Source: Sedimentibacter sp. MB35-C1
GTDB lineage: Bacteria; Bacillota; Clostridia; Tissierellales; Sedimentibacteraceae
DNA: 64,000 bases
Direction of reading: 5' to 3'
NCBI RefSeq assembly: GCF_030913635.1
Contig: NZ_CP133188.1
Span: 3,534,001 to 3,598,000, forward strand
Part shown: one piece after another, positions 40,301 to 61,866 of the stretch
How positions within the stretch are numbered: position 1 is the first letter of the stretch
How the letters are laid out: every line of letters begins with the position of its first letter
The notes under the pieces: generated by a model
Database searches by the model: none
What the model saw: the letters and a program-made list of their open reading frames with translations, nothing else
What the model was told of the DNA's origin: nothing
Program-made: the position numbers and the translations under genes

Positions 40301-40646
40301 TATAAATACTATCTACGTTCGATAATGTACCTCTATATGGAAACTGCTTATCATATAGATTGTTCTCTAGTATAACAATTGGCATCTTATTAATATTTGA
40401 CTGCTCTTTAAATAACTGATACTCCTCAATTGTCATCCATTTATAGTTAATGTCAAATTTACGATTTTCTATTATTTCATCTGTCACCTGTTCTCGGATT
40501 TCACTAAGGTCAACTTTGTCTATATAGTACATATCAAATGAAAAGTATTTATTTTCACGTGATAGATTAGACACATCAAAACCTTTTAGTATAATAATTG
40601 CATTACCTGTTTGTTTGATTATTTCCAATATCTTATTTTCAATCAT
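37356..40646 (-). CDS. RecQ-like superfamily 2 helicase (1096 aa)
   Basis: A long SF2 helicase. Residues 1-300 are an extra N-terminal domain of unknown type. The helicase core has motif I STGAGKS (326-332), motif II DEAH (433-436), motif III TATA (471-474), and motif VI QEIGRAARD (634-642), with the W-G-x-x-F-R-x-x-Y pattern after DEAH (HIVTTWGKSFRADYWYLG) that marks RecQ enzymes. Residues about 680-1096 are a further large region without the RecQ zinc-binding or HRDC signature seen in housekeeping RecQ. It overlaps the upstream sigma gene by eight bases (ATGATTGA), so the two are translationally coupled. Likely part of an accessory, possibly anti-phage, locus. Confidence 0.75.
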   Translation of the reverse strand: MIENKILEIIKQTGNAIIILKGFDVSNLSRENKYFSFDMYYIDKVDLSEIREQVTDEIIENRKFDINYKWMTIEEYQLFKEQSNINKMPIVILENNLYDKQFPYRGTLSNVDSIYNYLYYQEDNELELDQKSILENVSLFYGQLDYSKQSGNYYVTYPELEEKINIFKFYEDVPLEVNISEDYPTENVQQIELSDNETPFLDLEFNILNEKNESNIVMILSGDIKNLPNRYLERLNILEQLTDINLFFTTLSIRRKTIENEEDYAKILKNVYGYTGFRQIPFYRNIESHSKEIIDISQAQIIDDIVTQAEKAMHGEPFRDVYITASTGAGKSVMFQIPALYLSKKYTNDKPLTLVISPLIGLMNDQVDNMRRKGVISSATINGNTPPFEKENILERVQNQEVNVLYLSPETLQARSDIKMLIGDRNIGVVIIDEAHIVTTWGKSFRADYWYLGIYLAKLRKEHKFPIVTFTATAIYGGREDMYLDTRNSLNMISPISYFGDVRRDDILMNVRSSEKDFDAEGRDYRKTKNVLALKHLQKATKNKQKSLLYFPTVKLLINFYNFLAQNEPEIAKKTGKYYGTLQKEEKDEVLSEYKSGELQFVLATKAFGMGIDIPDITNVYHYAPTGNVVDYIQEIGRAARDRSKVKNGFGFGIIDFLNRDMNEVKQLYGMSAIRKTQILEVMRKVLSIYKEKGNNRNLIISPEDFKYIFVQNNRDEDSLENKVKTVLLMIEKDFASPNKLGYSPFVARPRSLFGNDLIFVTPELRSQITKSRLGNYFSKRVDLESKTYVAVYEVNLCGIWEKYYKNMSFPSFKFALFNQGEREKLQHKNLFEKFVYTSGVEVALSNDISVENLLSQYRIILESFESFVNEQKIAGSQFTVEDLGNYFMRTLKIFDKFEARAFAQTVINSAFEFGKIKEIKFISERTNSNADNLRYIVHKDGDVFSGFIMSSITNSLNPSDNYVMGLDKITTFHFRAHGDDIDAKIAALGIGEARKLLSYQVIGGNNPQIYLRMNSVYPLEKSVKQGDTYQNNILLDIQKKHYISVEMLKFLFAKEQPEASAKEKILNYTKWFWDNIENYFMGILPNEVKDRLSKK

Positions 40647-41853
40647 AATAAAAATCCTTTAGCCTTTCTGTATTTATAGACTTTTGTAGCTTTTTAATTG
40701 CTTTTGCTTCAATTTGCCTTATTCGTTCTCGCGTTAGATTTCCAGCTTGTCCTATTTCTTCCAGGGTATGTGTTCGATTGTCAGTCAATCCAAAACGTGA
40801 ATCTAAAATTTTTGCTTCTTTTGGTGTTAGTTTTTTTTTAAATAGTTCCTTTATTTCTTTCTTTAATGCAACTTCTTCAACATATTCTTCTGGCGATTGA
40901 TGCTTTGTATCAGGTATAAATTCACCCACACAACTTTGACCATCTTCCCCAACAGGCATATCCAAACTCGTCAAATTTGCTATATGCTCAAAATATTGTA
41001 GCTTTTTAACCTCATCCAAAGTAATATTAAGCAACTTTGCAATTTCATCACCGTTTGCAGCACGTTCGTCCTCATTCCAAAACTCATTTTGTACTTTAAT
41101 ATATTTGATGATTTTTTCTCGCATATGAACAGGAATTCTAATTGTTGTACTGCAATCAGCTATATTCCTAGTAATACTTTGTCTAATCCACCAGGTTGAA
41201 TATGTCGAAAATTGATTTCCCATATTTACATCAAATTTTTCAGCTGCCTTCATTAATCCCTGCATACCCACTTGAAACATATCATACACATCAAACGAAA
41301 CAGTTGAAACTTGTCGATAATTGGATACAATATCCCATACTAATTTTTGATTTGCATTAATTAAATTATCTAAAGCTTTTTGACGCTTTTCAAAATTTTC
41401 TTTATTAGACTGAAGAGCAATCAAATACTCAAAATTATGACTTTTATCTACTATATCCCTAAATTTTGATAATTCTTTATTAAATGTATCATCTTCTAAA
41501 ACAGAATCTAAATCATCAAAATGTAATTCATCTAGAAAATCAAAATCATTCCCATCACTTTTCTTTTCTGAATCTATTTTCTCTTTTTTATACCATTCTT
41601 TAAAACTTAATTCTCTGCCTTCTCCATTTTTTTCTATATATATAACCGTTTCATTGATTTTATCTTTAAACAATCCATTTGCATCTATTATCTTTATTTC
41701 TAACGAATCCAGTTCCTTATATACTGTTTCCTTTTCACTCTCTGATACTGGATATCTACTAAACAATTCCTCCACCTTGTCATTTTTTAAATTACTCCCA
41801 AACCGATAATTATCGTTTATGTATTCAATAATTTTAAACAAATTATTACTCAT
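40639..41853 (-). CDS. Primary-type sigma-70 factor coupled to a helicase
   Basis: A 404-residue RpoD-like factor. Residues 1-160 include a variable acidic segment rather than a clear region 1.1. Region 2 contains YDMFQVGMQGLMKAAEKFDV (core binding) and STYSTWWIRQSITRNIAD (promoter melting). Region 3 follows with IRIPVHMREKI, and region 4 ends with 'RTHTLEEIGQAGNLTRERIR' and QIEAKAIKKLQ. These are group 1/2 features, unusual for an accessory gene. GGAGGGG precedes the ATG. It is the first gene of a pair with the RecQ-like helicase and presumably redirects RNA polymerase, perhaps toward the locus itself. Confidence 0.85.
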   Translation of the reverse strand: MSNNLFKIIEYINDNYRFGSNLKNDKVEELFSRYPVSESEKETVYKELDSLEIKIIDANGLFKDKINETVIYIEKNGEGRELSFKEWYKKEKIDSEKKSDGNDFDFLDELHFDDLDSVLEDDTFNKELSKFRDIVDKSHNFEYLIALQSNKENFEKRQKALDNLINANQKLVWDIVSNYRQVSTVSFDVYDMFQVGMQGLMKAAEKFDVNMGNQFSTYSTWWIRQSITRNIADCSTTIRIPVHMREKIIKYIKVQNEFWNEDERAANGDEIAKLLNITLDEVKKLQYFEHIANLTSLDMPVGEDGQSCVGEFIPDTKHQSPEEYVEEVALKKEIKELFKKKLTPKEAKILDSRFGLTDNRTHTLEEIGQAGNLTRERIRQIEAKAIKKLQKSINTERLKDFYYD

Positions 41854-43366: not shown

Positions 43367-46132
43367 TTATCCAAGCTCCACCTGTACTTCATCAACAACT
43401 TTACGTACTACATAGTTTGTATCTACCGATGCTTTTTGAATAATGTATTTTAAAGTTTCAAGATCAACATCTTTTAACCGATGAACATTTCTTAGTATTT
43501 TATTCTTTATGTATACATTATCTGTGTCCATTAGCTTAACTAATTGATTGCATACAACATTCTTATTCTCTATGTTCTTCAATAATAAAAACAGAATTTG
43601 AACCGCATTCAAACGAATATTCAAGTCGGATTCCACAGACCAATTTATTGCCTGCTGTAATATTATATGTTCTAACAAAATGTCAGATACATTGGCGTTG
43701 TCAGCTTCTAGATAATTCAAAAATGCTGTACTAGCTTTTCTATTTGATAAAATATCATCGCCAATATCTGCTAATGTATCAAGTAAACCTACTGTTATGT
43801 CTTCGCCTAAGCAATTATACAAAAGAAGTGAAGAAAATCTGAGATTTGTTTCACTTAAATTCGTCATAATAGCCTGTGCCATTTCCACTTTCTGCTTGTT
43901 CGTCAATAATTCAATTATCTTATCTTTGTTACGCTCTTTTATGCTAGATCGAGATTTTAGCAAATAAACTAATAGTTCTATAGCATCCATTTTTGTTTCA
44001 ATTATCTGATTTTCCTTTAATAGAGTTTCAATTGAGACTTTAAACGCAGAATCAATTAATTCCTTAGAGAACTCTGCTGTACTTTGCTGTAGGATATTCT
44101 TTATAATAATATGTGTCTGATTCCCTCGACCAAAAAATGTCCCATTTTTCCCTTGTTCTTCATTGTCTTTCTGCACTTGAGTTATATATGACTTCAGAAA
44201 GTCTGGCATATCCGTGTTCTCTTCGGCAGTTGTCTCCAATCGGTAAGTACCGTTATAAAAATCAGGCATTTCATCTGCAATTATTTTATCAAGTTCTTCT
44301 GTTAGCTCCCTATGCCTTTTCCTGAGTGTAAATAGCGATGTTTCTAGACTATGAATGTGTTTTCTTTCAACCGGATTTCGCACTATATTTATAATGGCTT
44401 CCAATAGCTGGGTTGCATTTTCTGGAGACACTTGGTCAAGATTTACGCATTTCCGAATCAGGTTAAATATTTCATCATAAAATCGACGTTTATTATTATG
44501 AATACATTTACATATGATTTCAATTAATTGGTTCTGCGATATACGCAAATAACTCCCTTCAAGAGCAGGGAATATCTTGTAACCTAATACAGTTACAGAA
44601 TTTTCATCTTCAATCCATTTGGAAATAAGTTTATATAACTCAGACCAAATAAAACTAAATCTTTCGTCATCCATATAATAGCAAGTAGTTCTAAACGCAT
44701 CTAGCCTGCTAATAAACCGTTGATATGCAATCGGTCTATTGTTCGAAAAAGAATAAATTTCATATGCATCATTTTCATTCATCTTACTTAACAAATCATC
44801 AAAACACCTAATTATTCCATCAGTTTCTTTTTGATTGCCAAATATAATTGTAGATTTTAGCAGAAGTTTTTTTATGCTCCAATTTGAATACCTGGTTGCA
44901 CAATAAAAGGAAATAAGTTTTATACGTTCGTATAGTAACCCTAAATGAGTAAGTGAGCCATTATACATCGCTAATACATAAATGCCTGTAAGTGATTTAA
45001 TATGTGTGCCTAGCCCGTGACCGTAAGTAACAGTGCCAGGAGTTTCAGTTTTATATTTAATATCCTGTTGAATGATACCTTCATAATAATTACTGCCTAG
45101 CCTGTCCAATAATGGGTAATAAAGCATAGATTGACTGTTATCCAGTTCGTTTTGATATTTCGGTTTTGGCGAGTAAGTATTTCGGCTTTCCTGTAAGAAC
45201 ATATCTTGATTCCGCAAATCAATGAGTATATCTTTTATAAGCCATTCAGATAAGCAATTTTGCTTTGCTATTTGCAATGCTTCATCTAGTTTGTTTATAC
45301 AAGCTTCTTGATTTCCGGAATAATATTCCTTGATGGCCTCGTACCGCTTTTTTGTTACAGTAAAATGCTTCGAAGTTTGATGTTTCTCAATTTCTAATAA
45401 TAATGAACTCAAGTTATATTCATTGACGGTAGCACCTTCAAATAAAACGGGGAGAAAAGCAACACATAATTTATCCATATTCCCTGTGTTTTCCACCTCA
45501 TCATATGAATACTCCAAAATCATTTCTGTAAAATATTTAATACAACAGTCCATATTTGCAAACACATTTTTTCGTGCAATACTGTCTGAATAAAGAGACG
45601 TTTCAATATCTGAAATGTCAGCAGATTGTTCTGTCAATGACTTTTCACGCCATATTAAGCGTCCTTTACAGTATTGCTTATATATTATTATTAAATCGTT
45701 AATTAAATCCATTGCACCGCTTTTGATAAGGTCTTTAAAATCATGTATGGTTTCACTTTTTGCGTATTTTGCGCCCTTCAAGCTTTTTTGCAGTGGCGTT
45801 TCTGCTTTTGAAAATTGGTCACAAAAATAGAAAAGTGATTTGATACCATGCTTTTTAGCTGTATCAATTTCCTTTTGAACTCCTGTTGGAACACCATCGT
45901 TATTATCGATCAGAAATATACATACATCGCAATCTTCTAATGCACATGTATAGTGCTGTCCCGCCGAAGTCGTGGAAGCTCCTTCGGATTCAAAAACATA
46001 AGCTTTTGCAAAACCAGTTGATTCAATTAATACTTTAAGTGCTTCACGCACGAAATTATATTTTTGTTTTTCAGGCTCATTACCACATGCAGAGCTTATA
46101 AATATTTGTATTTTTTGCTCAGATGTAAACAT
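43367..46132 (-). CDS. DUF4062-type protein with long helical-repeat region
   Basis: About 921 residues from ATG 46132 (GGGAGG upstream; a longer frame to 46147 is unsupported). Residues about 6-160 match a TIR/SEFIR-like DUF4062 domain: QIFISSACG, then 'AYVFESEGASTTSAG', DVCIFLIDNNDG and 'GVQKEIDTAKKHGIKSLF'. Such domains occur at the N-terminus of defence and signalling proteins. The rest is almost entirely alpha helical, with HEAT-like repeats in the last 250 residues (LLVYLLKSRSSI and later LRNVHRLKDVDLE). No STAND NTPase motif was seen, so the helices may act as sensor or scaffold. It sits beside a Gabija-like pair. Confidence 0.65.
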   Translation of the reverse strand: MFTSEQKIQIFISSACGNEPEKQKYNFVREALKVLIESTGFAKAYVFESEGASTTSAGQHYTCALEDCDVCIFLIDNNDGVPTGVQKEIDTAKKHGIKSLFYFCDQFSKAETPLQKSLKGAKYAKSETIHDFKDLIKSGAMDLINDLIIIYKQYCKGRLIWREKSLTEQSADISDIETSLYSDSIARKNVFANMDCCIKYFTEMILEYSYDEVENTGNMDKLCVAFLPVLFEGATVNEYNLSSLLLEIEKHQTSKHFTVTKKRYEAIKEYYSGNQEACINKLDEALQIAKQNCLSEWLIKDILIDLRNQDMFLQESRNTYSPKPKYQNELDNSQSMLYYPLLDRLGSNYYEGIIQQDIKYKTETPGTVTYGHGLGTHIKSLTGIYVLAMYNGSLTHLGLLYERIKLISFYCATRYSNWSIKKLLLKSTIIFGNQKETDGIIRCFDDLLSKMNENDAYEIYSFSNNRPIAYQRFISRLDAFRTTCYYMDDERFSFIWSELYKLISKWIEDENSVTVLGYKIFPALEGSYLRISQNQLIEIICKCIHNNKRRFYDEIFNLIRKCVNLDQVSPENATQLLEAIINIVRNPVERKHIHSLETSLFTLRKRHRELTEELDKIIADEMPDFYNGTYRLETTAEENTDMPDFLKSYITQVQKDNEEQGKNGTFFGRGNQTHIIIKNILQQSTAEFSKELIDSAFKVSIETLLKENQIIETKMDAIELLVYLLKSRSSIKERNKDKIIELLTNKQKVEMAQAIMTNLSETNLRFSSLLLYNCLGEDITVGLLDTLADIGDDILSNRKASTAFLNYLEADNANVSDILLEHIILQQAINWSVESDLNIRLNAVQILFLLLKNIENKNVVCNQLVKLMDTDNVYIKNKILRNVHRLKDVDLETLKYIIQKASVDTNYVVRKVVDEVQVELG

Positions 46133-46149
46133 AGTACACCTCCCCAAAT

Positions 46150-46328: not shown

Positions 46329-48089
46329 CTATTCAAATACATCCTCCCAATCATAATCTTCTGTTGATAGTCCTTTTAAATTAAGTAGACAGCTAGTTTG
46401 TTTTGTATGATTCCAATGATTTATTCCCGTATTTACTGTCATAAAAACGTCTTTCTTCGCTCTCGTAACTGCGACATACAAAACACTTATTTCTTCTTTA
46501 AATGCTTTTTCCATTGTTTCTTCGTACAAAAATTCACAATAATCAAATCCACTGTTGCAACTATAAACATTTCGGCATGGTCTACATACATAAGAACTAG
46601 GAAATGCAAAACCATTTAATTTTGGAATAATAACATATTCCCATTCAAGCCCTTTTGCTGAATGTATTGATGTCAATACTACAGATTCATCTATAAACTC
46701 CATCATATGCTTTAATCCGTTATTGCCAAGTGTGAAATCGATATTGTCGTATTTATCTTTTGAAGTTCCTTCCCAGTTTCTAGATTCATTGAAAAGCACC
46801 TCTAATAATTTGTACATTGCGTCAAAAATAAATTTCTTATCGTTTTGCTGGTATATCTCATGCTCTCTACTTTTTACAGCATCAAGACATTTTTGCAAAT
46901 CTCTTTGAACGGCTCTTCCTGATGTTGTATTATGGAATTCTTCAATTGCTATACTATAAAATTTTAAATATTCAGGATCTGTCTCTCTAAACAATGCATT
47001 AAAATACTTAATTCCTTTTTGATCTAGTTTTGTAACAATTGAATTTCCTTGCCAACCAGCGCGAACCAATACTGCCACTTTATCATCTAAATTAGAAATC
47101 ATCCTGTTAATTCCTTCAACAATGAATTCATCTTCCTCTTCGTCACTATCTAAATTTTTCAAAAGAACCGACGCTTTTAATTTAGATGGACCATAATTTT
47201 CAGAATAATCTCTAATAAGACTGTCCAGATTTTTCATTCTTTCATTATTTCTAAATCTGTAATTACTATGAAATTCTATCTCTACGGCAGGATAGGACTT
47301 TATAAACATACTGAAAATTCCATTAATAGCTCCTAAAAAACCATATATTTTTTGAACATCATCTCCTAAAAAAACAACAATATTATCACCAATCAATTTC
47401 TTAATAAGTAAATATCCAAGAAGGTTTGTGTCTTGGAACTCATCGACAATAATCATCTGATAATATTCTTTATAGAAGGACGAAACTTGCCGCTTACAAA
47501 GTAGTTTTATAGCCGATACCAAAATTCCATTATATGTTATAACATGGTTTGTGATTAATTTTTTGTTTAGTATATCCCAATAATCATCTAAAGCATTCAT
47601 TAGATTATCTTTATTAGACTTTTTAACAGCATCATCTAAAGCCTTTAATTTATCACTGTCAGAACCAATAATAAAAGCATCGAGCACGTGGCTACTATCA
47701 TCTACGACTTTAAATTCAAACAAATTCGAGAACTCTGGATTAAGAGAATATCCATGCTTAAAAAGTAATCTCATAGCAAAGTTATGATAATTAGCAATAT
47801 CTACTTTAGATATGTATTTTTCTGTATTCTCAACAAAATCAGGCAATAATGTCTTAAGTGAATCTTTTATTTTCATTGCTGCATTAACGCTAAAGGTCAT
47901 AGCGAGTACTTTCTTATTAGCGGGTATATGTCCAGTACTTAATTCTCTTGCAATTTTACTTACCATAGCTGTTGTTTTACCACATCCAGCTGGAGCTGTT
48001 ACAATTATCTTTTTATCATCTGAAAAGATAAATTCTAGTTGGTCTTCATCACCAGAATGTTTTTCTCTTATTATCTCTTCTAATGTCAT
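46329..48089 (-). CDS. gajB: UvrD-like helicase, Gabija GajB-like
   Basis: A 586-residue superfamily 1 helicase. Motif I is APAGCGKTT (32-40), motif II DEFQDTN (216-222), motif III GDDVQKIYGF (242-251), motif V SIHSAKGLEWE and motif VI YVAVTRAKKD. It overlaps the upstream OLD-family gene by four bases (ATGA). The UvrD plus class-2 OLD pair is the Gabija anti-phage architecture, in which GajA nicks DNA when nucleotides fall and GajB is activated by the ends. It is longer than the reference GajB (about 494), so a relative of Gabija rather than a close copy. Confidence 0.75.
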   Translation of the reverse strand: MTLEEIIREKHSGDEDQLEFIFSDDKKIIVTAPAGCGKTTAMVSKIARELSTGHIPANKKVLAMTFSVNAAMKIKDSLKTLLPDFVENTEKYISKVDIANYHNFAMRLLFKHGYSLNPEFSNLFEFKVVDDSSHVLDAFIIGSDSDKLKALDDAVKKSNKDNLMNALDDYWDILNKKLITNHVITYNGILVSAIKLLCKRQVSSFYKEYYQMIIVDEFQDTNLLGYLLIKKLIGDNIVVFLGDDVQKIYGFLGAINGIFSMFIKSYPAVEIEFHSNYRFRNNERMKNLDSLIRDYSENYGPSKLKASVLLKNLDSDEEEDEFIVEGINRMISNLDDKVAVLVRAGWQGNSIVTKLDQKGIKYFNALFRETDPEYLKFYSIAIEEFHNTTSGRAVQRDLQKCLDAVKSREHEIYQQNDKKFIFDAMYKLLEVLFNESRNWEGTSKDKYDNIDFTLGNNGLKHMMEFIDESVVLTSIHSAKGLEWEYVIIPKLNGFAFPSSYVCRPCRNVYSCNSGFDYCEFLYEETMEKAFKEEISVLYVAVTRAKKDVFMTVNTGINHWNHTKQTSCLLNLKGLSTEDYDWEDVFE

Positions 48090-49813
48090 TTTTTTACCTC
48101 TCTTGCAAGTTTCTTAATGATTCTTTCAAAGGCTGGTGGAATAACTGTAACATATTCCGCAAGTAATGCAGATTTAGATGCATTTTTAGTATCTCTCAAT
48201 ACATTTAATTCATTAGCTTTTTTATCCGACATTATTTGTTTTTGTAATGTCTTGTCTATAACTATGCTGTTAGGATCTGCTCGGTATGCTGAAACATTCA
48301 GTGACAATCCATATGGTCTTAAAATACCCACAAAAGCACCTATTTTTCCGACACAATTATTGTATTTCATATAATCAAGAAGGGTAAAATTATCATAGAT
48401 ATCTTCTTCAAAATCTTTTCCTTTTGTAAATGAAACGTCAGGTATATGATCATATTTCGCCTTTTTATCCCGATCGATCATTGCAATGGATTTTATATGA
48501 AATTCTTGATAAAGTTTCATACAGTTTTCAACACTATCCGCTCCATCCAGCTTTACAACACCTATGCCTAATTCATCAAAATCAAGATTCATCCTTCTTG
48601 CAAAAACTGGCATAGCACCATTTTCAGTATCCCCTTCTACAAAAAGAATGCATTTACTAAACATAGCTTCTTTTAAATACAAAAAGCTACGGAGTAAGTG
48701 CTTATACAACGTATCATCCAGTGTCATTCCACTTCCAGATACTATTTCTATATTACTTGTTGCTGCATTTGAAGGTCTGTAAATTCTAATAAATTGCTTA
48801 TAATCATTCAACAAAATATTTGGTGAATGCGTTGCAATAAATATCTGTCCAATAAGACCATCAATATCAAATAGGGACTTTAATAATTCAATAAAAACTA
48901 AATTCTCATTCTTCATAAGAGCTTCGATTTTCTTAATCAAGCTTCTCTGTCTGTATGGATGCTGATGTACTTCTGGCTCATCTAACACTAAAAATAATGG
49001 AAACAGTTTCTTTCCGTTTTTATTGATTAAACGTTCTTCGAAATCTTCTAGTTTTCTTGTCGTCCTTGTATTGTATATAATTTCAATAATCTGTAACAGA
49101 ATATTAAAAGCATATTGGATTCCTTCGCCGAGCGATCCCAGTTCTCGCCCATTTTCATCTCCCAATCCAAGCATTCTACATACTATTTTATCAGTTTCTG
49201 TATAAAGATAAGCGCTTACTGTATCTCCTGTGATTGAATTTAAACTATTAATCTGCTTATTAATTTCTTTTACAATACTTTTTAATTTTGTTGTCTTAAG
49301 GATATCCTTTTCTTTTATTCCAAATAATTCCAAGCTGTGCTGAATAAGATAATTCAATACCTTTCCTGATCCACTGGTTTTTCTAAAATCAACTTCCTTA
49401 GACGGCATACGCTGTGCGTAATAATAAAGAATATTCATTTTTTTAATTACGGCAGCACTAATCTTCGTCTTATTTGGTGTGTCGTGAAAATAATTAATTC
49501 TTTCATCTACAGAATCTTGTAATGCAATTAGAGTAATTGAGTTACTGTTATCAACGTCAAAGTTATCTTCGAAGAAACCAACTTCATCAGCTGAATAATT
49601 TACTGTCATTTTTATCTGGATTGGTTGCAAAACATCCGTGAAATCTGATTCTCCAAACTTTCCAATTCCTAAAAATATACTCATAAGCTCCAACACATTC
49701 GTTTTTCCAATATTATTTTCTCCTATAAGAAAATTCATTGTTTCATTAAACTTGATTATTTTTCCCGATAGATTTCTGTAATTTAAAATTTCCTTTATCT
49801 CGCTTACATACAT
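48086..49813 (-). CDS. gajA: OLD-family ATP-dependent endonuclease, Gabija GajA-like
   Basis: A 575-residue protein, close to reference GajA (about 578). The ABC-type ATPase has Walker A GENNIGKT (31-38), Walker B FLVLDEPEVHQH (about 274-285) and the H-loop THSP (329). The C-terminal TOPRIM nuclease has FVEGDTE (Glu394) and MIDRDKK (Asp447, Asp449) as metal-binding residues. GAGG lies upstream of the ATG. The downstream overlapping UvrD-like gene completes the pair. All key residues are intact, so the system should be active. Confidence 0.8.
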   Translation of the reverse strand: MYVSEIKEILNYRNLSGKIIKFNETMNFLIGENNIGKTNVLELMSIFLGIGKFGESDFTDVLQPIQIKMTVNYSADEVGFFEDNFDVDNSNSITLIALQDSVDERINYFHDTPNKTKISAAVIKKMNILYYYAQRMPSKEVDFRKTSGSGKVLNYLIQHSLELFGIKEKDILKTTKLKSIVKEINKQINSLNSITGDTVSAYLYTETDKIVCRMLGLGDENGRELGSLGEGIQYAFNILLQIIEIIYNTRTTRKLEDFEERLINKNGKKLFPLFLVLDEPEVHQHPYRQRSLIKKIEALMKNENLVFIELLKSLFDIDGLIGQIFIATHSPNILLNDYKQFIRIYRPSNAATSNIEIVSGSGMTLDDTLYKHLLRSFLYLKEAMFSKCILFVEGDTENGAMPVFARRMNLDFDELGIGVVKLDGADSVENCMKLYQEFHIKSIAMIDRDKKAKYDHIPDVSFTKGKDFEEDIYDNFTLLDYMKYNNCVGKIGAFVGILRPYGLSLNVSAYRADPNSIVIDKTLQKQIMSDKKANELNVLRDTKNASKSALLAEYVTVIPPAFERIIKKLAREVKK

Positions 49814-49948
49814 TATTATGCCTCACTTTTATACTATCTTTATTTAATCTTTATAATCAACTTCTCATTATTGCTATTATACAAAATTTAAGTTTTGCAT
49901 AAATATTTAATCATTCGTAACAATTTTAATAAAAGGAGTTCCATCAAT

Positions 49949-50683
49949 ATGCAATCTAATAAAACTTGTACTTTTATCTCTTATTGCCAGACCGATTTAA
50001 ATTCTTCCGCAGGAACCAGGGCTAGAAAAATAGTATCCATAAGACAATTTTGGAAATACCTAAATTCAAAAGCTCATTTACTAGATGGCAATATAGCAGA
50101 AGAACTTGAAACCCCTAAACTTCCTAAACGAATTCCAAAATATCTAACACTAGAAGAATCTGTTCGTTTACTTATAGAATGTAAATCTATTCCTCGTGAC
50201 AATTGTATTATTACTATTTTTCTAAATTGTGCTCTTCGTTTATCCGAACTTGCTAATCTAAATATTAACCAAGTTAATGCAAATATTCTTTCAGTAATTG
50301 GTAAAGGCAATAAAAAACGTAAAATATTTTTGACACCTGCAGAACAAAAGTCTTTAGCTACTTGGCTTTAAATTCGAAACAACATGGATGTGCCAACTAA
50401 TGCGCTTTTCATATCCAGAAATAAAAAACGCCTAACTACACGATACATTCAAAATACCATAAAAAAACATGTTATCAAAGTTGGATTAAATTCTGAAAAT
50501 ATTTCTACCCATAAATTACGACATACATCTGCAACTTTAATGTACAAATATAGACATGTCGATATCCGTTCTCTACAACAAATTCTTGGTCATGAAAGTA
50601 TTGCCACAACAGAAATATATGTTGATGATTCATTATTGCAATCTGCTGTGAATTCCAATCCACTTGCTTTAATGTTTAATTAG
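49949..50683 (+). pseudogene. Tyrosine recombinase (XerC-like), truncated and interrupted
   Basis: The frame opens at ATG 49949 behind AAAAGGAG but corresponds to the middle of the core-binding domain ('SYCQTDLNSSAGTRARKIVS'), so about 60 N-terminal residues are missing. The catalytic domain reads LTLEESVRLL, NCALRLSELANLN (catalytic Arg), then a TAA at 50369-50371 in frame. After it, HKLRHTSATLM (His, Arg), LGHESIATTEIY (His, Tyr) are present. It is opposite in direction to its neighbours and may be the dead integrase of the island. Confidence 0.8.
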
Positions 50684-52571: not shown

Positions 52572-53864
52572 TTATGCTGCCTGTGCTGATATCGGTGGTC
52601 TCTTGATGTCTCCAAGCATTTTTACAGGATCATAGCTGACTCCTGTTGTTAGAATCTTGTAAATCACCCTAAGCAACTTACAGGCAACTGCAATCAGCGA
52701 CTGCATCTTCTTCAATGGATTATTCTGTCTGGTCGTATAATAATGGTGCAGTTCCCTGAACTCTTTATTTTTTCCAACTAATGACATTGCAACCTCAAAC
52801 AGCAGATATCTCAGTCTCTTGCGACCACGTCTGCTTATCGTTGTCTCGCCCTTATGTTTTCCAGAACTGTTCTCCACCAGTGCATATCCTGCTAGCTTCT
52901 GTATCTGTTTTGGGTTATCAAAACGTCTTATGTCACCCACTTCAGCTATAAATCCAGATACGGTCTTACTTCCAATACCTTTAATTTCCAGCAACTTATC
53001 TGTGTATGAAATTCCACTCATCAAGTCTTCTATTAGAGCCATTAGTTCATTGACTCTTTTACTATAAACCTCATAATCACTGAGCAGATTTTTTATTTCC
53101 ATACGTGCTGCTGTCAAACCTTCCTGACTGCCAATGCTATGCTCTGCAGCTGCTACCAAGGTCTTTGCCCTCTTTCGTCCAGCGCCTCTCAGCTTTGCGT
53201 CCCGCCAGATTTTGTTCACTCCTTCCACACCTAACGCTGCAATGTCTGCTGGCAATGGTGCCTGTGCTAAAATCATCAATCCGCTTTTTGCATCTTTCTT
53301 CCCATAAACGTCTTTATACTCTGGAAAGTAAATGCTGAACCATCTTGCAATCCTATTAAGAACTCTTGTAAGTTCCTCCTGCGCCTGAAATCTCAGGTTT
53401 GAAGCCGTCCTAAGCTCTGCATAGACACCTTCCGGAAGGTAAGGGTAAGAGAATCGCCCCTCATTGATTAGTCCTGCGATTACTTTCGGATCCTTGCGAT
53501 CAGTCTTTGTTGGATTGTTATCATCTAGTTCTTTGGATTTCTTTACGTGATGAGGATTGACAAGCACCGGTCTCATGCCGTTGTCCTGTAGGAACTTTCC
53601 TAGTGCAAACCAGTAGTGTCCTGTTGGCTCCATCCCTGGAAGTACAGCCTGTTTCTCATGCTTTTCTCCCAGTTCATGCATCCATGCCAAAAAACTGTTA
53701 AATCCAGCTTCTGTATTACTGAATGAGAAGGCCTTCTTTGAGTACTCATAACCTCTCCAGTCAAAAGCTCTGGCATAGTGTAGTTCACTTCCGACATCAA
53801 TACCAACCACTAAAGTTTTTTCTGTAATAGTTCCTAATTTTGCGTTCTGTGTGTTATAATTCAT
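52572..53864 (-). CDS. IS110-family transposase
   Basis: A 430-residue transposase. The N-terminal DEDD RuvC-like domain has VGIDVGSELHYA (Asp23), GMEPTGHYW (Glu) and KTDRKDPKVIA (Asp). The C-terminal Transposase_20 domain has 'LEIKGIGSKTVSGFIAEVGD' and the ENSSGKHKGETTISRRGRKR segment with the catalytic serine. Length is normal and no frame damage is visible, so the element may be active. Confidence 0.9.
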   Translation of the reverse strand: MNYNTQNAKLGTITEKTLVVGIDVGSELHYARAFDWRGYEYSKKAFSFSNTEAGFNSFLAWMHELGEKHEKQAVLPGMEPTGHYWFALGKFLQDNGMRPVLVNPHHVKKSKELDDNNPTKTDRKDPKVIAGLINEGRFSYPYLPEGVYAELRTASNLRFQAQEELTRVLNRIARWFSIYFPEYKDVYGKKDAKSGLMILAQAPLPADIAALGVEGVNKIWRDAKLRGAGRKRAKTLVAAAEHSIGSQEGLTAARMEIKNLLSDYEVYSKRVNELMALIEDLMSGISYTDKLLEIKGIGSKTVSGFIAEVGDIRRFDNPKQIQKLAGYALVENSSGKHKGETTISRRGRKRLRYLLFEVAMSLVGKNKEFRELHHYYTTRQNNPLKKMQSLIAVACKLLRVIYKILTTGVSYDPVKMLGDIKRPPISAQAA

Positions 53865-54499: not shown

Positions 54500-55720
54500 T
54501 CATATAAATAATCGATTATAGCTTTGGCTAAATGAGACATCAACTGAGACAGCATAAGTGTTTATCCCAGATTTATCTATTTTAAGTTCTTGTTCTTCTT
54601 TACATCGTTTATCTCTATCAACTTCAAGGCACTGTTCATAATTAAAAAACAATGAATAACATATTCCTCCACTATTTTTTGAACTTCTATATGCTATTCC
54701 ATCAATGGAAATACCATTATAGCAATATATATACCGAAAATACTCTGCAATGATTTGAGCGGGTATGTACTCTATGCTTACCATATTCTCAATTGGTTGA
54801 GTAAGATTTTCGTTTAACTTTATAAAAAAATCTAAGGCTTGTCTGTATTTTCGTTTTTCTTTATCAAATAGACTTGGGAATTCTATATCTTCTACTTTAG
54901 TGAGATCAACTAGTATTAAATTTCTTAAATTTACAAACGGTGCAACTGTTGCATACTTGTATTGAGAATTATATATCTCAGCAATTGCTGTTTTCACATC
55001 ATTCGCACCATAAAAGATTGAAATTCCTTCTGCACTCATTCTGTTTGATTTTGCACAATGACTAGGAGGAGAACAGAGGTTTTTAGCTTCGTCTAACACC
55101 ATTGAACTGCTATGCATGCGTCCTCTAAAAAATGTTGTATTTTCTGGAATACTAGTAATCAAATTCAACTCAGTAACTTTTTTGCCAATGTAATCAAGAA
55201 CATTGAAATTTGCTTCTTCTCTATATTCATCTTTTTTAGGCATTCTGAAAAACACATATCTTGTTTTAGTTTTTACCATTTCGCAAAAATCATCCCATAG
55301 TAATGCTTTATCTATGCTTTCCCTTAACTGATAAGGATCTCTTTCACACCACGTATCATCATCAATAGTTTCATAAATATCTTTTATCAAATCATCTTCT
55401 AACGGCAATTCACATCCTAATTTATCATAGATTAAGTTGTATGTATCCCATGTCTTTGCTCCAACATATTCACCATGATCCCAACTCATTGTATCTACAG
55501 CTCTATCATACTCATATTCAATTCCGGATATTATTTCACTAATAAGGTCTTCTACTGATATGCAGATTTCATCACTACCACAATAGTCACATTTGTCACA
55601 CTTTCCATTGTCAATAACAAATTGCTTAAGGTACCTTTCTCCCACGCAATTTGAGCAAACCTTTTTATTAATACTTTTATACTCACTTTTTTTGTATTCT
55701 AGCATTTTATTTTTAAGCAT
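54500..55720 (-). CDS. HEPN/RES N-terminal plus RES domain protein
   Basis: A 406-residue protein. Residues about 20-45 hold Cys pairs (CSNC, CDKCDYCG) that probably bind zinc. A helical HEPN/RES N-terminal domain (about 55-160) leads to the RES domain with FFRGRM (about 198-203), SAEGISIFYGA, KTAIAEIY and AYRSSKNSGG. RES toxins (Xre-RES type) degrade NAD. Here the domain is fused rather than in a toxin-antitoxin pair, an architecture common in defence islands. No antitoxin-like gene is adjacent. It is preceded by AGGAGG at somewhat long distance. Confidence 0.75.
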   Translation of the reverse strand: MLKNKMLEYKKSEYKSINKKVCSNCVGERYLKQFVIDNGKCDKCDYCGSDEICISVEDLISEIISGIEYEYDRAVDTMSWDHGEYVGAKTWDTYNLIYDKLGCELPLEDDLIKDIYETIDDDTWCERDPYQLRESIDKALLWDDFCEMVKTKTRYVFFRMPKKDEYREEANFNVLDYIGKKVTELNLITSIPENTTFFRGRMHSSSMVLDEAKNLCSPPSHCAKSNRMSAEGISIFYGANDVKTAIAEIYNSQYKYATVAPFVNLRNLILVDLTKVEDIEFPSLFDKEKRKYRQALDFFIKLNENLTQPIENMVSIEYIPAQIIAEYFRYIYCYNGISIDGIAYRSSKNSGGICYSLFFNYEQCLEVDRDKRCKEEQELKIDKSGINTYAVSVDVSFSQSYNRLFI

Positions 55721-56461: not shown

Positions 56462-56779
56462 CTAATTAAGGCAAAATTCATCTGGGTCAGATATTTCTAT
56501 AGTTTTTGTCATTCTTGTAGAATTTATATAGAATTCATCAGGATCACTATTTTCAACTACAAACGTTAATTTTGTTTTTTCACTAAAAACAAATTCATCT
56601 GGATCAGATATTTCTATTGTTCTAGTTTCCCTTGTTAAATCAAAGCAAAATTCATCAGGATCACTATTTTCAATTGCATTAGTTTTATGAGTAGCGCCCT
56701 CATTTCTTGACGTAATTGTTGAATTTAATTTCAAATCACAAACTTCAGCGTATTTGCTTAATATGTGTTTTCTAAGCAT
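56462..56779 (-). CDS. Graspetide (omega-ester RiPP) precursor with four core repeats
   Basis: A 105-residue precursor from ATG 56779, fixed by GAGGAGG six bases upstream (a TTG opening at 56794 is part of that site). Residues 1-32 form a leader without repeats. The rest carries four repeats spaced 19, 20 and 19 residues, each with Thr seven residues before SDPDEF and Glu three before it: consensus TxxhExSDPDEF, alternating ENSDPDEF and EISDPDEF. Thr and Ser side chains are the likely nucleophiles and Asp/Glu the acceptors for ester links made by the ATP-grasp ligase encoded upstream. One base separates it from the membrane-protein gene. The AT-rich inverted repeat 56422-56459 follows. Confidence 0.8.
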   Translation of the reverse strand: MLRKHILSKYAEVCDLKLNSTITSRNEGATHKTNAIENSDPDEFCFDLTRETRTIEISDPDEFVFSEKTKLTFVVENSDPDEFYINSTRMTKTIEISDPDEFCLN

Positions 56780-56780
56780 A

Positions 56781-57854
56781 TTATTCCTCCTCAATTATTT
56801 TAACTTCATTTGATTTTAGTGTTTCATCATAAAAATATTTTATAGTCAAATTTTTGTATCTTTCTTCAAATTCTTTTGCAATATCAGTTTCACATTTGTC
56901 ATTACTTGAAATAACAACAAGTCTTCTTACTTCATTTTTTTGTATCTTAAGCTTTAATTCACTTATTTTGATAGCAGAAATACTATAGGGGTTATTTATA
57001 TCATCAGTAAAGACATTGATTACCTGTTGAGATATAACTTCATTATTATTTAAACTCATATAATCTACATTTGATACATTCAACACCAATAGGCACGATA
57101 GTAATAAGCTTGCAACTATCCAATTTTGCAAATTCTTAACATAGCTAACAAACAAATCAGCTTTGCGTTTTAAATATTGCCAGTCATAATGGTATTGTTT
57201 ATTTAATTCAATTTTATGATTAGCACTTTTTCTTAGTTCCGAAAAACTACTTTTATCAATAGACTGTATTTTAACGACTTGTAAAATATATAATATTGCA
57301 TTTGTAATGCTATATATAATTAAACAAACTATTATTTTGCCACATATATTCAATGCAAAAAAATATTTCAAATCTACGAATGCCAATAATATCGGTACTA
57401 CTGTTAATATTATTGTAGCGTATAGATTTACTTTTTCATTACTCTTTTCAATCCTACTCTCTTCATTATTTATTCGATAACATAAAGATTCTTTTTCATA
57501 TTCTATGTCTAATTCTGATACTTCTGTAATCAAATGTTGCTCATATCTATTTACAATATCATTAATATAATCAGATGAGGGATTAAATAATTCCATTTTA
57601 TCTAATGATTTTTTAGTTACCAATTTAAACTTTTTCAATTTAAAACTATACGTTAAAATAAATATAGAAATATTACCTAGCATCAAATTGATCAAACTTA
57701 TCCTAGGTTCTTTAATATCATCTTTAAATTTATTTCTATATTCTACTGTTCCATAATTTGAATCATCAGTAAAAGAAAACAAAACACCTAAATATGACCA
57801 TATATATAAAATACAAGCTACAATTTTTTGCAATGCAAATTTTACAACCTTCAT
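56781..57854 (-). CDS. Membrane protein of the graspetide operon
   Basis: About 357 residues from ATG 57854 (AAGGGG upstream), ten bases after the ligase stop. Membrane segments occur at about 8-28, 48-68, 140-160, 170-190 and 245-262, with a cytoplasmic helical stretch between the second and third and a C-terminal soluble domain of about 95 residues (ISAIKISELKLKIQKNEVRR). No ABC, MFS or peptidase motif was seen. Position between ligase and precursor suggests export, leader processing or immunity for the peptide. I do not recognise the family. Confidence 0.65.
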   Translation of the reverse strand: MKVVKFALQKIVACILYIWSYLGVLFSFTDDSNYGTVEYRNKFKDDIKEPRISLINLMLGNISIFILTYSFKLKKFKLVTKKSLDKMELFNPSSDYINDIVNRYEQHLITEVSELDIEYEKESLCYRINNEESRIEKSNEKVNLYATIILTVVPILLAFVDLKYFFALNICGKIIVCLIIYSITNAILYILQVVKIQSIDKSSFSELRKSANHKIELNKQYHYDWQYLKRKADLFVSYVKNLQNWIVASLLLSCLLVLNVSNVDYMSLNNNEVISQQVINVFTDDINNPYSISAIKISELKLKIQKNEVRRLVVISSNDKCETDIAKEFEERYKNLTIKYFYDETLKSNEVKIIEEE

Positions 57855-57864
57855 AAGCAACCCC

Positions 57865-58764
57865 TTATTCAATCAAATATTGTACTATTTCATTGGAAAT
57901 ATTTAAATTTAATTCTTTTTCCAACCATTGCCACTGACCATTTGGGTTAACTTCAAGAAATACCCATTCATTTTTATCATTAACAATATAATCAAACGCT
58001 CCAAACTTTAAATTAAAATCTTCCATCATCTTTATGCTTTTTTTAAGCACATAATCCGGAACGTCAATAACTGAATAATAGTTACTATCATATCCTTTTC
58101 GCCAATCTAAAATATTTTCAGACTCTATTTTGATTGGAAATACTGTTTCATTTACTATTGTTATTCTAACTTCATATAGTTTTACAATGTACTCCTGTAA
58201 ATATATTGGAGTTAACAATATTTCTTCTTGAAATCCATTAAAATAACTAGTTTGATAGATTTCGCACTCAGTTTTCCTATAGATTTTTCCAGTTGTAATT
58301 GGCTTTATTATTGTTTTATATTTTTCAAATAATTTCATGCTTTCTGAATTATTTCCAATAAATGAATTAGGAATATTTATGTCATTGCTTAATGCATACA
58401 TAAGTTGATATATCTTGTTTTCACATTTGCGTAGAATTGATGGTTTTGTTAGTACTTTGCCATTAAACGAATCAACTAACCCATTAATCAAAGCTAGAAT
58501 ATCATTATTTATCATATTTCTATATTCTGGTTCAAACTTGCTCAAATCAGGGAACCTTGGTTTTCTATAATAAATACTAAATACATCTTGCTTATATAAA
58601 ATAGTATTCCATTCATCATTTTGAATACTCCATGTAAAATCGCTTCCAACTGAAATTAAGTATTTATCTAAACAATCTACATTTACTCTATAGAAATTCA
58701 CAATACCACTATACTTTCCAATAATATAATCTACTGTAAAGTCAATTGAACTAGTAATTATCAA
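57865..58764 (-). CDS. ATP-grasp ligase of the graspetide (MvdD/MdnC-like) family
   Basis: A 299-residue ATP-grasp ligase, normal length. The order of motifs fits graspetide macrocyclases: IYYRKPRFPDL (67-74, family hallmark), the ATP-binding Lys in IIKPITTG (154), 'QEYIVKLYEVRITIVNE' with the DxR-like EVR (198-200), DWR (220-222) and FGAFDYIV...FLEVNPNGQWQWL (254-282; Mg ligands Glu271, Asn273). It would phosphorylate Asp/Glu side chains of the core and join them to Thr/Ser as esters. Given start is TTG 58764; a better match to the family N-terminus (MKNVLIIT) begins at an ATA codon, 58776, nine bases after AAGGAG. See findings. Confidence 0.85.
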   Translation of the reverse strand: MIITSSIDFTVDYIIGKYSGIVNFYRVNVDCLDKYLISVGSDFTWSIQNDEWNTILYKQDVFSIYYRKPRFPDLSKFEPEYRNMINNDILALINGLVDSFNGKVLTKPSILRKCENKIYQLMYALSNDINIPNSFIGNNSESMKLFEKYKTIIKPITTGKIYRKTECEIYQTSYFNGFQEEILLTPIYLQEYIVKLYEVRITIVNETVFPIKIESENILDWRKGYDSNYYSVIDVPDYVLKKSIKMMEDFNLKFGAFDYIVNDKNEWVFLEVNPNGQWQWLEKELNLNISNEIVQYLIE

Positions 58765-58909
58765 TACATTTTTTATAGTGCTCGTCTCCTTAAAAAAACA
58801 ATAAATTAACTCTTATATAATTCATTAAAATTACTCTCTACAAAACAAACAATAACTTCATTACTTTTTTCATAAGTTCATTATGTATTTTTACAAACAA
58901 TAATACATT

Positions 58910-59050
58910 TTACAATATCGGTCCTTCTACGCAAATGGCCTTAAAATTTGTATTTGGTTCAAGTAAAGCTAATGCTTTTTTCGCCGCCCATACTAAATGA
59001 AAAATATCACCTGCATTAGATTCTCTTGCTCCATCTAATGGCTTAGACAT
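58910..59050 (-). pseudogene. N-terminal fragment of a DUF4297-like defence nuclease gene
   Basis: A 46-codon ORF starting at 59050: MSKPLDGARESNAGDIFHLV, then 'WAAKKALALLEPNTNFKAIC' and a stop. This resembles the start of the long dsDNA-nuclease (DUF4297/Cap4-like) proteins of defence islands (D-G-A-R-x-S-N-A-G-D-x-F-H). The remaining many hundred residues are missing. Probably a remnant of a lost defence gene; a deliberately short product is less likely. Confidence 0.55.
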
Positions 59051-59844: not shown

Positions 59845-61866
59845 TCAATTCTCATTCTTAGCTTTATAGTCAGCTACTACCTTTTCAGCCATATTAGTTG
59901 GCATTTCGTCGTATCTTAAGAATTCCATGGTAAAGCTTCCTCTTGCTTGAGTCATTGATTTAAGTTCAATTGCGTAGGTGTACATTTCAGCCATAGGTGC
60001 TTCAGCCATTACAAGCTGGCTTCCGTCTGTCTGCTGCTCCATGCCGAGGATTCTTCCTCTTCGCTTGTTCATGTCACCCATTATATCTCCCAGGTATTCA
60101 TCGGGTATGTTAATTTCAACTTTTGCAACCGGCTCAAGTAGTATTGGTTTAGCTTCTGCCATACCTTTCCTAAATGCTAATGAAGCGGCTATTTTAAATG
60201 CCATTTCGTTAGAGTCAACATCGTGGTATGAACCGTCGTACAATGTTGCTTTAATGCCCACAACCTTACAACCTGCCAGAGTTCCTTTGTCCAAACATTC
60301 TCTCAGACCTTTTTCAACTGCTGGTATGAAGTTCCTCGGAACAGATCCTCCAAATATTTCTTCTGAAAATACGAATTCTTCATCGCTTGGTTCAAATCTG
60401 ATGTGAACATCGCCGTACTGTCCTGCTCCTCCGGACTGTTTCTTATGCTTGCCCTGTACATCTGATTTACCTCTGATTGTTTCTCTGTATGCAACCTTAG
60501 GCGGTGATAGTTCCACTTCAACCTTGAAGTTGTTTTTAAGTTTACTTGCTATAACTTCCAGCTGAATATTTCCCTGTCCTCCCAATACTTGTTCTTTTGT
60601 TTCAGAATTTCTTTCTATACTAAAGGTAGGGTCTTCCTCGTTGAGTTTGTGAAGTCCCAGTCCGACTTTTTCATCATTATCTTTTGTTTTAGCTCTTACT
60701 GCCATAAAGTAGCAAGGTTTTGGAAAATCTATTTCGTCATATTCAACAAGGTTTGTTTTCAAAGAAATAGTATCTCCCGTAGCGAAATATTGCAGCTTTG
60801 ATGTGGCTCCAATATCTCCCGCCTTAATTTCCGAAGCTTCAAGCTGTTCTTTACCTCTCATGTAGAACACATTTCCCAGCCTTTCAGATTCCTGAATTTT
60901 AGCGTTGTATATATCTGCATCCTTCTTAATTGTTCCGGACATAACTTTAAATAATGTAATTTTACCAACAAACGGGTCTACGATTGTTTTAAATACAAAA
61001 GCTGACAGCGGTGCTGATGAATCCGCCTTCACATCTTCTGCATCCTGTTCCGTCGGCATGTATTCTTTTATAACGCTCATAAGAAGGCTTGCTCCTAAAC
61101 CCTTCGATGCAGCGCCAAGAACTACGGGAACAAGTTCTCCCGCCAATACAGCTTTTTTCAATCCATCATGAATTTCTTCATCGGTGAATTCTTCGCCCTC
61201 AAAGAATTTTTCCAGCATTTCTTCGTCTGTCTCTGCAACGGACTCCATTAATATTGATCTGAAATTTTCAGCCTTTTCAGCAGTATCTGGTAATGTTTCC
61301 ACAGGTTCGGTGCCGATGTAGCATTGTCTTTCCAAAATATCCATATATCCGTCATATTTATCGCCTTTACCGAGAGGAATTGCAAATGGCACAACTCTTT
61401 TTCCGAATTTTTCTCTTAAATTATCCAGCAATACGTCAAATTTAACGTTTTCTTTATCCATTTTATTAACGAATATTATTCTTGGAAGCTTCCTCTGCTC
61501 AGCATATTTCCACGCTTTTTCTGTTCCAACTTCAATTCCTGAACTTGCATCTATTACAATTACTGCACTGCTGGCAACTCTTAACGCTCCATATACCTCA
61601 CCTACGAAATCAAAATATCCAGGAGTATCAAGGAAATTAATTTTAGTATTATCATACTCTACAGGTATGATTGATGTGCTGATAGAAACTTGTCGATCTT
61701 TCTCTTCTTTATCGAAATCGGAAACAGTATTTCCGTCTTCAACTTTGCCTATACGATTTATAACTTTAGTATCAAATAAAAATGCTTCGGTTAATGATGT
61801 TTTGCCACAGCTACTGTGGCCAATCAAGGCAACGTTTCTAATTTGGTCAGTGTTATACGTTTTCAT
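59845..61866 (-). CDS. Elongation factor G-like translational GTPase
   Basis: A 673-residue EF-G paralogue. G motifs are GHSSCGKTSL (G1), DTPGYFDF (G3) and NKMDKE (G4, about 130). Domain IV has 'SGGAGQYGDVHIRFEP' and domain V 'DYLGDIMGDMNKRRGRILGM'-like residues. It is shorter than canonical FusA (about 690-700) and has 'HSSCGKTSL' instead of 'HIDAGKTTT', so it belongs to the FusA2-like group of unknown ribosome role. It is a core-gene boundary for the island. A good ribosome binding site (AGGAGG) precedes 61866. Confidence 0.85.
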   Translation of the reverse strand: MKTYNTDQIRNVALIGHSSCGKTSLTEAFLFDTKVINRIGKVEDGNTVSDFDKEEKDRQVSISTSIIPVEYDNTKINFLDTPGYFDFVGEVYGALRVASSAVIVIDASSGIEVGTEKAWKYAEQRKLPRIIFVNKMDKENVKFDVLLDNLREKFGKRVVPFAIPLGKGDKYDGYMDILERQCYIGTEPVETLPDTAEKAENFRSILMESVAETDEEMLEKFFEGEEFTDEEIHDGLKKAVLAGELVPVVLGAASKGLGASLLMSVIKEYMPTEQDAEDVKADSSAPLSAFVFKTIVDPFVGKITLFKVMSGTIKKDADIYNAKIQESERLGNVFYMRGKEQLEASEIKAGDIGATSKLQYFATGDTISLKTNLVEYDEIDFPKPCYFMAVRAKTKDNDEKVGLGLHKLNEEDPTFSIERNSETKEQVLGGQGNIQLEVIASKLKNNFKVEVELSPPKVAYRETIRGKSDVQGKHKKQSGGAGQYGDVHIRFEPSDEEFVFSEEIFGGSVPRNFIPAVEKGLRECLDKGTLAGCKVVGIKATLYDGSYHDVDSNEMAFKIAASLAFRKGMAEAKPILLEPVAKVEINIPDEYLGDIMGDMNKRRGRILGMEQQTDGSQLVMAEAPMAEMYTYAIELKSMTQARGSFTMEFLRYDEMPTNMAEKVVADYKAKNEN

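What the first reader, a model, noticed from the sequence alone, without database searches (positions are those of the whole stretch)
56462..58790. Apparent new graspetide cluster with a TxxhExSDPDEF core repeated four times
The ATP-grasp ligase has the graspetide hallmarks (RKPRFPDL, EVR, DWR, EVNPNGQW), and the precursor ends in four repeats with conserved Thr, Glu, Ser, Asp, Asp, Glu spaced 19-20 residues. I do not know a described graspetide group with this core. Alternation of ENSDPDEF and EISDPDEF might give two ring types. A third gene encodes an unknown membrane protein rather than a usual exporter or protease, which makes the pathway unusual. Function could be a protease inhibitor or antimicrobial.
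Basis: partly seen in the sequence, partly recalled or inferred. Interest (0 to 1): 0.9.

Follow-up and report, generated by a model that had tools for sequence, protein, structure and literature searches.

The report
Four-repeat graspetide operon at defence hotspot
A bacterium carries three genes that most likely make a small protein with several internal cross-links, of a kind already known in outline, in a stretch of chromosome rich in anti-virus genes; its job is unknown.

Summary
In detail: on the minus strand lie a graspetide-type ATP-grasp ligase (57865-58776), a membrane protein (56781-57854) and a 105-residue precursor with four 19-20-residue repeats (56462-56779). Seven further loci carry the same three genes in the same order (one with a frameshifted ligase, one with a weak precursor).

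The conserved unit is TxxTxxxExxDxD(E)F, strict in 4 of 4 window repeats. The Ser is not invariant, and the N/I alternation fits duplication of a pair of repeats, not two ring types. I recall, but could not check here, that TxxTxxxExxDxD is the thuringinin (group 3) motif. The membrane protein is not unusual: 61 of 80 related loci have one beside the ligase, and published mining reports such proteins in thuringinin loci.

Best reading: a thuringinin-like multi-core graspetide, probably two nested side-chain esters per repeat. Less ordinary is the setting: an A+T-rich insert beside an EF-G-like gene, in a defence island (Gabija, an Avs3a remnant), where a same-genus relative carries CBASS. Across 20 related loci I saw no clear excess of defence genes over control stretches, so a defence role is only a possibility.

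The parts
57865..58776 (-). Graspetide synthetase (ATP-grasp macrocyclase), 303 codons if it starts at the ATA at 58776 (the ORF list gives TTG at 58764)
   Evidence: TIGR04187 8.4e-46 (156.6 bits, cut-off 350), MvdC 1.1e-39; solved ATP-grasp ligase 5ig8 4.4e-24; with the narrow-family profile 7m4s, 5ig8, 7mgv, 5ig9 at 1.2e-46 to 1.1e-44. Start inferred from AAGGAG and from relatives beginning MKxxLIIT or alike.
56781..57854 (-). Partner membrane protein, 357 aa: 3 strong and 2 weaker TM-like stretches, extra C-terminal alpha/beta region
   Evidence: Hydropathy; no Pfam match; homologous to partners elsewhere, hhalign 95.3%, E 2.2e-8; model pLDDT 61, C-terminal part beta-alpha-beta.
56462..56779 (-). 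Multi-core precursor peptide, 105 aa: short leader (MLRKHILSKYAE) and four TxxTxxxExxDxDEF units
   Evidence: aligned with relatives.
56474..56692 (-). Core region with the four units THKTNAIENSDPDEF, TRETRTIEISDPDEF, TKLTFVVENSDPDEF, TRMTKTIEISDPDEF
   Evidence: Units at precursor residues 30, 49, 69 and 88; window coordinates computed from these.
58910..59050 (-). 46-codon remnant of an Avs3a-type defence gene just upstream of the ligase
   Evidence: PADLOC Avs3a 2.2e-9 over residues 8-44; reading frame.
46329..49813 (-). Gabija defence pair GajB (46329-48089) and GajA (48086-49813) in the same island
   Evidence: PADLOC 2.6e-175 and 1.5e-144.
59845..61866 (-). EF-G-like GTPase gene (named by eye) that borders the insert; DNA similarity to the nearest relative ends at about 59273
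   Evidence: 99% identical in G015, which has no ligase match at 1e-20; alignment ends at 59273.

Best explanation
A multi-core graspetide operon of the thuringinin type. The ligase binds the short N-terminal stretch of the precursor (KHILSKY) and uses ATP to join Thr hydroxyls to Glu/Asp side chains in each repeat. By analogy with the two esters per repeat reported for thuringinin, I expect a small inner ring (second Thr to Glu four residues on) nested in an outer ring (first Thr to one of the Asp/Glu at the end). Four repeats would then give eight esters, a loss of about 144 Da. The membrane protein is a dedicated partner: exporter, anchor or target/immunity protein. The operon was acquired as mobile cargo in a defence hotspot beside an EF-G-like gene. 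Shown: genes, repeats, conservation, partner homology, island context. Inferred: leader binding, ester formation, ring pattern, partner role, mobility. Biological function is open; Makarova 2022 states that all graspetides characterised by then were protease inhibitors.
For: Ligase family. Same three genes in the same order in seven further loci (L009, L010, L011, L012, L013, L094, L129); the seven unbroken ligases, window included, form one clade, SH-aLRT 100. Of 29 anchored units in 7 precursors: T-3 24, T0 28, D+7 26. Partner homology and prevalence, 61 of 80. Two esters per thuringinin repeat: figure legend in PMC12291112 (passage read). Operon G+C 0.255 against 0.324 for the window; insert border; island genes.
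Against: No chemistry was tested. The TIGR04187 score is below its cut-off. The thuringinin motif is recalled, and no TgnB sequence was found for the tree. L012 and L013 lack the strict motif. By eye the leader lacks the second element (YD..LN/W-like) that a loose pattern finds in 53 of 56 wider precursors, some of these matches lying elsewhere in the protein. No protease or known transporter turned up among the neighbours examined, so release of the product is unexplained.
Confidence: 0.7

Rival explanations
1. The trio is a conflict module: the cross-linked peptide and the membrane protein together block phage growth or rival elements, for example by a membrane effector that the peptide gates or holds inactive.
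For: The window island holds Gabija and an Avs3a remnant. The same site in G019 holds CBASS (cyclase 1.8e-127, E1-E2 5.8e-124, JAB 2.3e-44, effector 4.5e-280) and in G003 a kinase matching mad6 (1e-53) and PD-T4-6 (1.4e-45). Narrow-family loci lie after large serine recombinases (L010, L129) or about 0.95 kb after a PADLOC RT_VI reverse transcriptase, 2.4e-89 (L009). Trio on predicted viral contigs and a Leptospira phage. One partner, L019, weakly matches PADLOC 2TM effector (0.0015) and PycTM (0.0035).
Against: No clear excess of defence models around 20 related loci against 20 control stretches. PADLOC gives nothing for the window ligase or membrane protein. No PycTM or SLATT among the 25 of 99 Pfam families shown for 34 partners. 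No Foldseek match at E 0.001. No activity data.
Confidence: 0.2
2. One reading: a new graspetide group with core TxxhExSDPDEF, the Ser taking part in a ring and ENS/EIS repeats giving two ring types.
For: SDPDEF is exact in all four window repeats.
Against: Repeats 2 and 4 are 89% identical in DNA, 1 and 3 83%, 3 and 4 only 56%, as after duplication of a pair.
Confidence: 0.1
3. The genes are a decaying remnant and no longer make a product.
For: Neighbouring remnants: Avs3a piece, an IS110-type transposase and split integrase-like frames (named by eye). The ligase has an unusual start codon.
Against: All three frames are open, with ribosome-binding sites; Ser and other residues are kept across different codons; the conserved ligase residues are intact.
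Confidence: 0.07

Closest known systems
Thuringinin (graspetide group 3 in the numbering of Lee et al. 2020)
   Same: Core motif TxxTxxxExxDxD in tandem repeats (motif recalled); single ligase; uncharacterised membrane protein in its loci (PMC8939145, passages read).
   Different: Here four repeats (thuringinin is trivalent, PMC12291112 legend), precursor last in the operon, short leader; how these two features stand in thuringinin itself was not seen. Sequence relation to TgnB not tested.
Related multi-core graspetide loci with TxTxxxxExDD cores (L008, L014-L018 and others here; perhaps groups 5/6, cluster 13 of Makarova 2022)
   Same: Repeated Thr/Glu/Asp cores, ligase 31-34% identical in the loci named, homologous membrane partner.
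   Different: Thr spacing TxT not TxxT; precursor usually first; longer leader with a YD..LN/W-like element.
Microviridin-type ligases (PDB 5ig8 and 5ig9, which I recall as MdnB and MdnC; AMdnB 7m4s; CdnC 7mgv)
   Same: Clear sequence homology over the ligase; DWR present in the 5ig8, 7m4s and 5ig9 alignments shown.
   Different: Different core and leader; no second ligase or acetyltransferase seen beside the window operon.
Groups 34 and 35 of Carter et al. 2026 (PMC13097080; abstract, introduction and two results sections read)
   Same: Described as often having long precursors with repeating motifs; group 34 also with proteins that are DUFs or match no HMM.
   Different: Motifs sit in supplements that could not be read; whether this locus belongs there is open.

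Membership tests
Graspetides | ATP-grasp peptide maturase beside the precursor | tested here: met
   below the NCBIfam cut-offs but clear homology to solved graspetide synthetases.
Graspetides | Precursor with leader and core carrying spaced Thr/Ser and Asp/Glu | tested here: met
   N-terminal stretch alike in relatives.
Graspetides | Side-chain ester or amide rings (loss of 18 Da each) | not testable with these tools
   Needs expression and mass spectrometry.
Thuringinin-type (group 3) | Core TxxTxxxExxDxD | tested here: inconclusive
   4 of 4 window repeats fit, but the definition is recalled; two searches found it in no held paper.
Thuringinin-type (group 3) | Ligase groups with TgnB | not tested
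   No TgnB sequence identified; no Bacillus among the plasmid rows listed or the 80 genome loci.
Thuringinin-type (group 3) | Dedicated uncharacterised membrane protein (cluster 18 of Makarova 2022) | tested here: inconclusive
Pycsar/CBASS 2TM effectors (PycTM) | Sequence or fold match of the membrane partner | tested here: inconclusive
   Weak PADLOC PycTM hits for 3 of 6 partners, best PycTM 0.0035 and best 2TM effector 0.0015, both L019; none for the window protein; no fold match.
Anti-phage defence systems | Enrichment of defence genes around related loci | tested here: not met
   14 against 9 model names among the 25 families shown per set; a small test with capped output.

The most novel reading that the evidence does not exclude
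A graspetide plus a dedicated membrane protein forms an anti-phage or inter-element conflict cassette: a cross-linked, multi-headed peptide that gates, blocks or is sensed by its membrane partner, spread by phages, recombinase elements and defence islands.
Probability: 0.18. Interest if true: 0.85.

Novelty: new member of a known kind. Interest (0 to 1): 0.42.

Why it matters
A membrane partner beside the ligase (by a transmembrane rule) turns up in eight phyla in the tree, and profile homology was shown between 6 narrow and 30 wider partners. In this genus the site beside the EF-G-like gene holds the graspetide operon in one genome and known defence systems in others. That turns the open question of what multi-core graspetides do in nature into a simple three-gene test in a laboratory strain.

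Tried and rejected
Defence enrichment. I compared flanking proteins of at least 200 aa from 20 partner-bearing loci (of 61; chosen for long contigs; 115 proteins) with 111 proteins from 20 stretches about 45-85 kb away on the same contigs. The controls were 152; 2 were over 1500 aa and 39 more were left out for the residue limit, roughly the last ones of each stretch. At E 1e-30, 35 and 44 PADLOC families matched; the output shows 25 of each, with 14 and 9 distinct names (CRISPR I-F, CBASS and Qat among the first; Gabija, Lamassu and restriction among the second). It does not give the number of proteins hit, and 10 and 19 families are unseen. I take this as no clear enrichment.

Literature. 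SDPDEF appears in one held paper, an unrelated imaging study. TxxTxxxExxDxD appears in none. Ramesh 2021, Lee 2020 and a DOI I recalled for the thuringinin paper are not held; supplements have a cap of zero and were not tried. So I make no claim that the core is unpublished. Searches for graspetide with phage (11 listed of 14) and ATP-grasp with defense island (2) show by their listings no paper on this link; PMC11118758, read in passages, reports other RiPP families near defence systems in ocean data.

Chance was rejected.

Full report
What is there. On the minus strand three genes follow closely: ligase, membrane protein, precursor. Starts need correction: the precursor begins at ATG 56779 behind GAGGAGG, the membrane protein at ATG 57854 behind AAGGGG, and the ligase probably at an ATA codon at 58776 behind AAGGAG, because close relatives carry four more residues there, such as MKAVLIIT (inference).

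The ligase. It matches TIGR04187 (8.4e-46) and the microviridin maturase models MvdC and MvdD, all below the curated cut-offs, and RimK in Pfam. Solved relatives are 5ig8, 7m4s (AMdnB), 5ig9 and 7mgv (CdnC) (1.1e-44 or better with a family profile); that 5ig8 and 5ig9 are MdnB and MdnC is recalled. D220, W221, R222, E271, N273, P274, G276 and W278 are invariant in 6 of 6 aligned sequences. The own genome has one copy at E 0.001.

The core. I extracted units with the pattern ..E..[any].[DY][DEG][FLVN], so E and the acidic end are partly fixed by the search; T-3, T0, the Ser place and D+7 are not. In 29 units from 7 precursors the first Thr is T in 24 (S in 1), the second T in 28 (S in 1), D+7 is D in 26, and the Ser place is S or T in 25. 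Units that miss the pattern (at least one in L012, and L013 altogether) are not counted. The strict motif TxxTxxxExxDxD occurs 21 times in 6 of 8 precursors: window 4, L009 5, L010 4, L011 3, L094 3, L129 2, L012 0, L013 0. Repeats 1 and 3 use AGT for Ser, 2 and 4 TCT; repeats 2 and 4 are 92% alike in protein and 89% in DNA, 1 and 3 75% and 83%, 3 and 4 only 67% and 56%. The alternation is therefore best read as duplication of a pair of repeats.

The family. Five are close (39-55% identical): an uncultured Clostridiaceae, an Oscillospiraceae MAG, Bacterium D16-51 (ligase frameshifted), Paenibacillus xylanilyticus and an Ignavibacteriales MAG; all five have ligase, membrane protein and a small frame in that order, the small frame of the last being a weak precursor with one core-like stretch. 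A genome of the same phylum (G742, L094) and an 8.6 kb contig labelled viral, which carries two serine recombinases (L129), add two. In the genomes sampled any ligase match is rare: 2 of 150 near relatives at E 1e-20, 5 of 391 in the class at 1e-15 and 6 of 398 in the phylum at 1e-25, each count including the own genome. In a tree of 77 ligases (L011 and 13 near-copies or partial rows left out; midpoint root) the seven narrow ligases are one clade, SH-aLRT 100; they group, at 87, with 15 rows that include the Leptospira phage and Bacteroidota loci, most of them with TxTxxxxExDD cores.

The partner. Of 80 loci, 61 have a reading frame with two or more TM-like stretches directly after the ligase. 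The 19 without include L011 (present, but after a frameshift), L015 (contig end), L017 (partner in pieces), L033 (one long fused frame) and nine actinobacterial loci. Window-family (6) and wider (30, two of them identical) partners align by profile over 153 columns, probability 95.3%, E 2.2e-8. Makarova 2022 (PMC8939145; abstract, sections 5 and 6 and passages of others read) reports cluster 18, an uncharacterised membrane protein specific to thuringinin loci and suggested to act in transport, and precursor cluster 13 joining groups 3, 5 and 6. So the third gene is expected. Weak PADLOC hits to 2TM effectors (0.0015) and PycTM (0.0035 at best) came from three other partners of six tested and not from the window protein; the Pfam families shown and fold searches gave no support.

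The leader. KHILSKY here, KPYIANY in L094 and KPYIAHF in L012 resemble by eye the MKPLILDY start of wider precursors (46 of 56 hold such a stretch by a loose pattern, some of them outside the leader) and the Phhx(1,2)h leader motif of Makarova 2022. A second leader element of most wider precursors is missing here.

The setting. Operon G+C is 0.255 against 0.324 for the window; 17 of 617 sliding stretches are as low, and the five lowest overlap the operon. A same-genus genome, G015, whose EF-G-like protein is 99% identical, has no ligase match at 1e-20, and DNA similarity ends at 59273. Between ligase and EF-G lies a 46-codon piece of an Avs3a gene (2.2e-9), and 7-12 kb beyond the precursor is Gabija. 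I fetched the EF-G neighbourhood of 7 of the 17 other same-genus genomes with a match and scanned ten chosen proteins of three: G019 has a CBASS operon about 0.6 kb from EF-G, G003 a kinase matching mad6 and PD-T4-6 about 1.2 kb away and a PDC-S28 protein further on, G015 a dCTPase match about 3 kb away; three of the ten proteins had no hit. The other four genomes show ordinary-looking genes by eye and were not scanned. In the narrow family, L009 follows a PADLOC RT_VI reverse transcriptase (2.4e-89), and L010 and L129 follow large serine recombinases; the flanking proteins scanned from L010, L011, L012, L094 and L129 gave no PADLOC match. Of the 11 predicted viral loci, five have ligase, partner and precursor (L129, L131, L133, L134, L135) and six lack partner and precursor by the rule; of two others checked, L126 has a partner only and L128 neither; L127 is the same contig as L139. 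Against a general defence link, the 20-by-20 flank test showed no clear excess.

Mechanism. The class chemistry (acyl phosphate, then attack by Ser, Thr or Lys) is as described in PMC13097080 (introduction read). I expect inner Thr0-Glu+4 and outer Thr-3 to D+9 or the following acid; L012 keeps D+9 but loses D+7 in its 3 counted units, which speaks weakly against D+7 as the outer partner (inference). [quoted passage not shown] No protease or known exporter turned up beside the operon, so how the product leaves the cell, or whether it does, is unknown.

Novelty. The locus is a new member of a known kind. I did not find this clade, gene order or short leader described in the parts of the held papers that I read, but the defining tables of 24 and 43 groups were out of reach, so I do not claim a new group. 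The defence-hotspot context is the part worth a test.

Noticed in passing
window 46329-49813: Complete-looking Gabija pair (GajB 2.6e-175, GajA 1.5e-144).
   Followed up: partly
window 37356-41853: DEAD-box helicase of 1096 aa (PADLOC C3a193 6.5e-143) beside a sigma-70-like protein that matches the last third of the MzaA profile (2.4e-39): a possible second defence module.
   Followed up: partly
window 43367-46147: 926-aa protein next to Gabija with only a weak DUF4062 match and no PADLOC match.
   Followed up: partly
window 54500-55720: HEPN-RES protein (6.7e-31, RES 1.6e-12), toxin-like, about 0.7 kb beyond the precursor; no PADLOC match.
   Followed up: partly
window 49895-50683 and 52572-53864: Two integrase-like pieces and an IS110-type transposase (named by eye) suggest that the island is mobile.
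   Followed up: no
window 58774-58776: The ligase seems to start at ATA, with a good ribosome-binding site.
   Followed up: partly
L143:8819-13796: CBASS operon with an endonuclease effector at the same EF-G site in a same-genus genome.
   Followed up: yes
L002, L006, L092, L093: Related operons whose small putative precursors end in ETGEDQKGE and lack the Thr repeats; a membrane partner is present, in two frames in L092 and cut by the contig end in L093. An odd core worth its own look.
   Followed up: no
L003 (same sequence as L078), L004, L005: Precursors with four TxTRExIDRSE-type repeats in Clostridia (L078 is Clostridium tepidiprofundi), partner present.
   Followed up: no
L131, L133, L134, L135, L008: Precursor-ligase-partner trios carried on predicted viral contigs and on Leptospira phage LalZ_80412.
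   Followed up: partly
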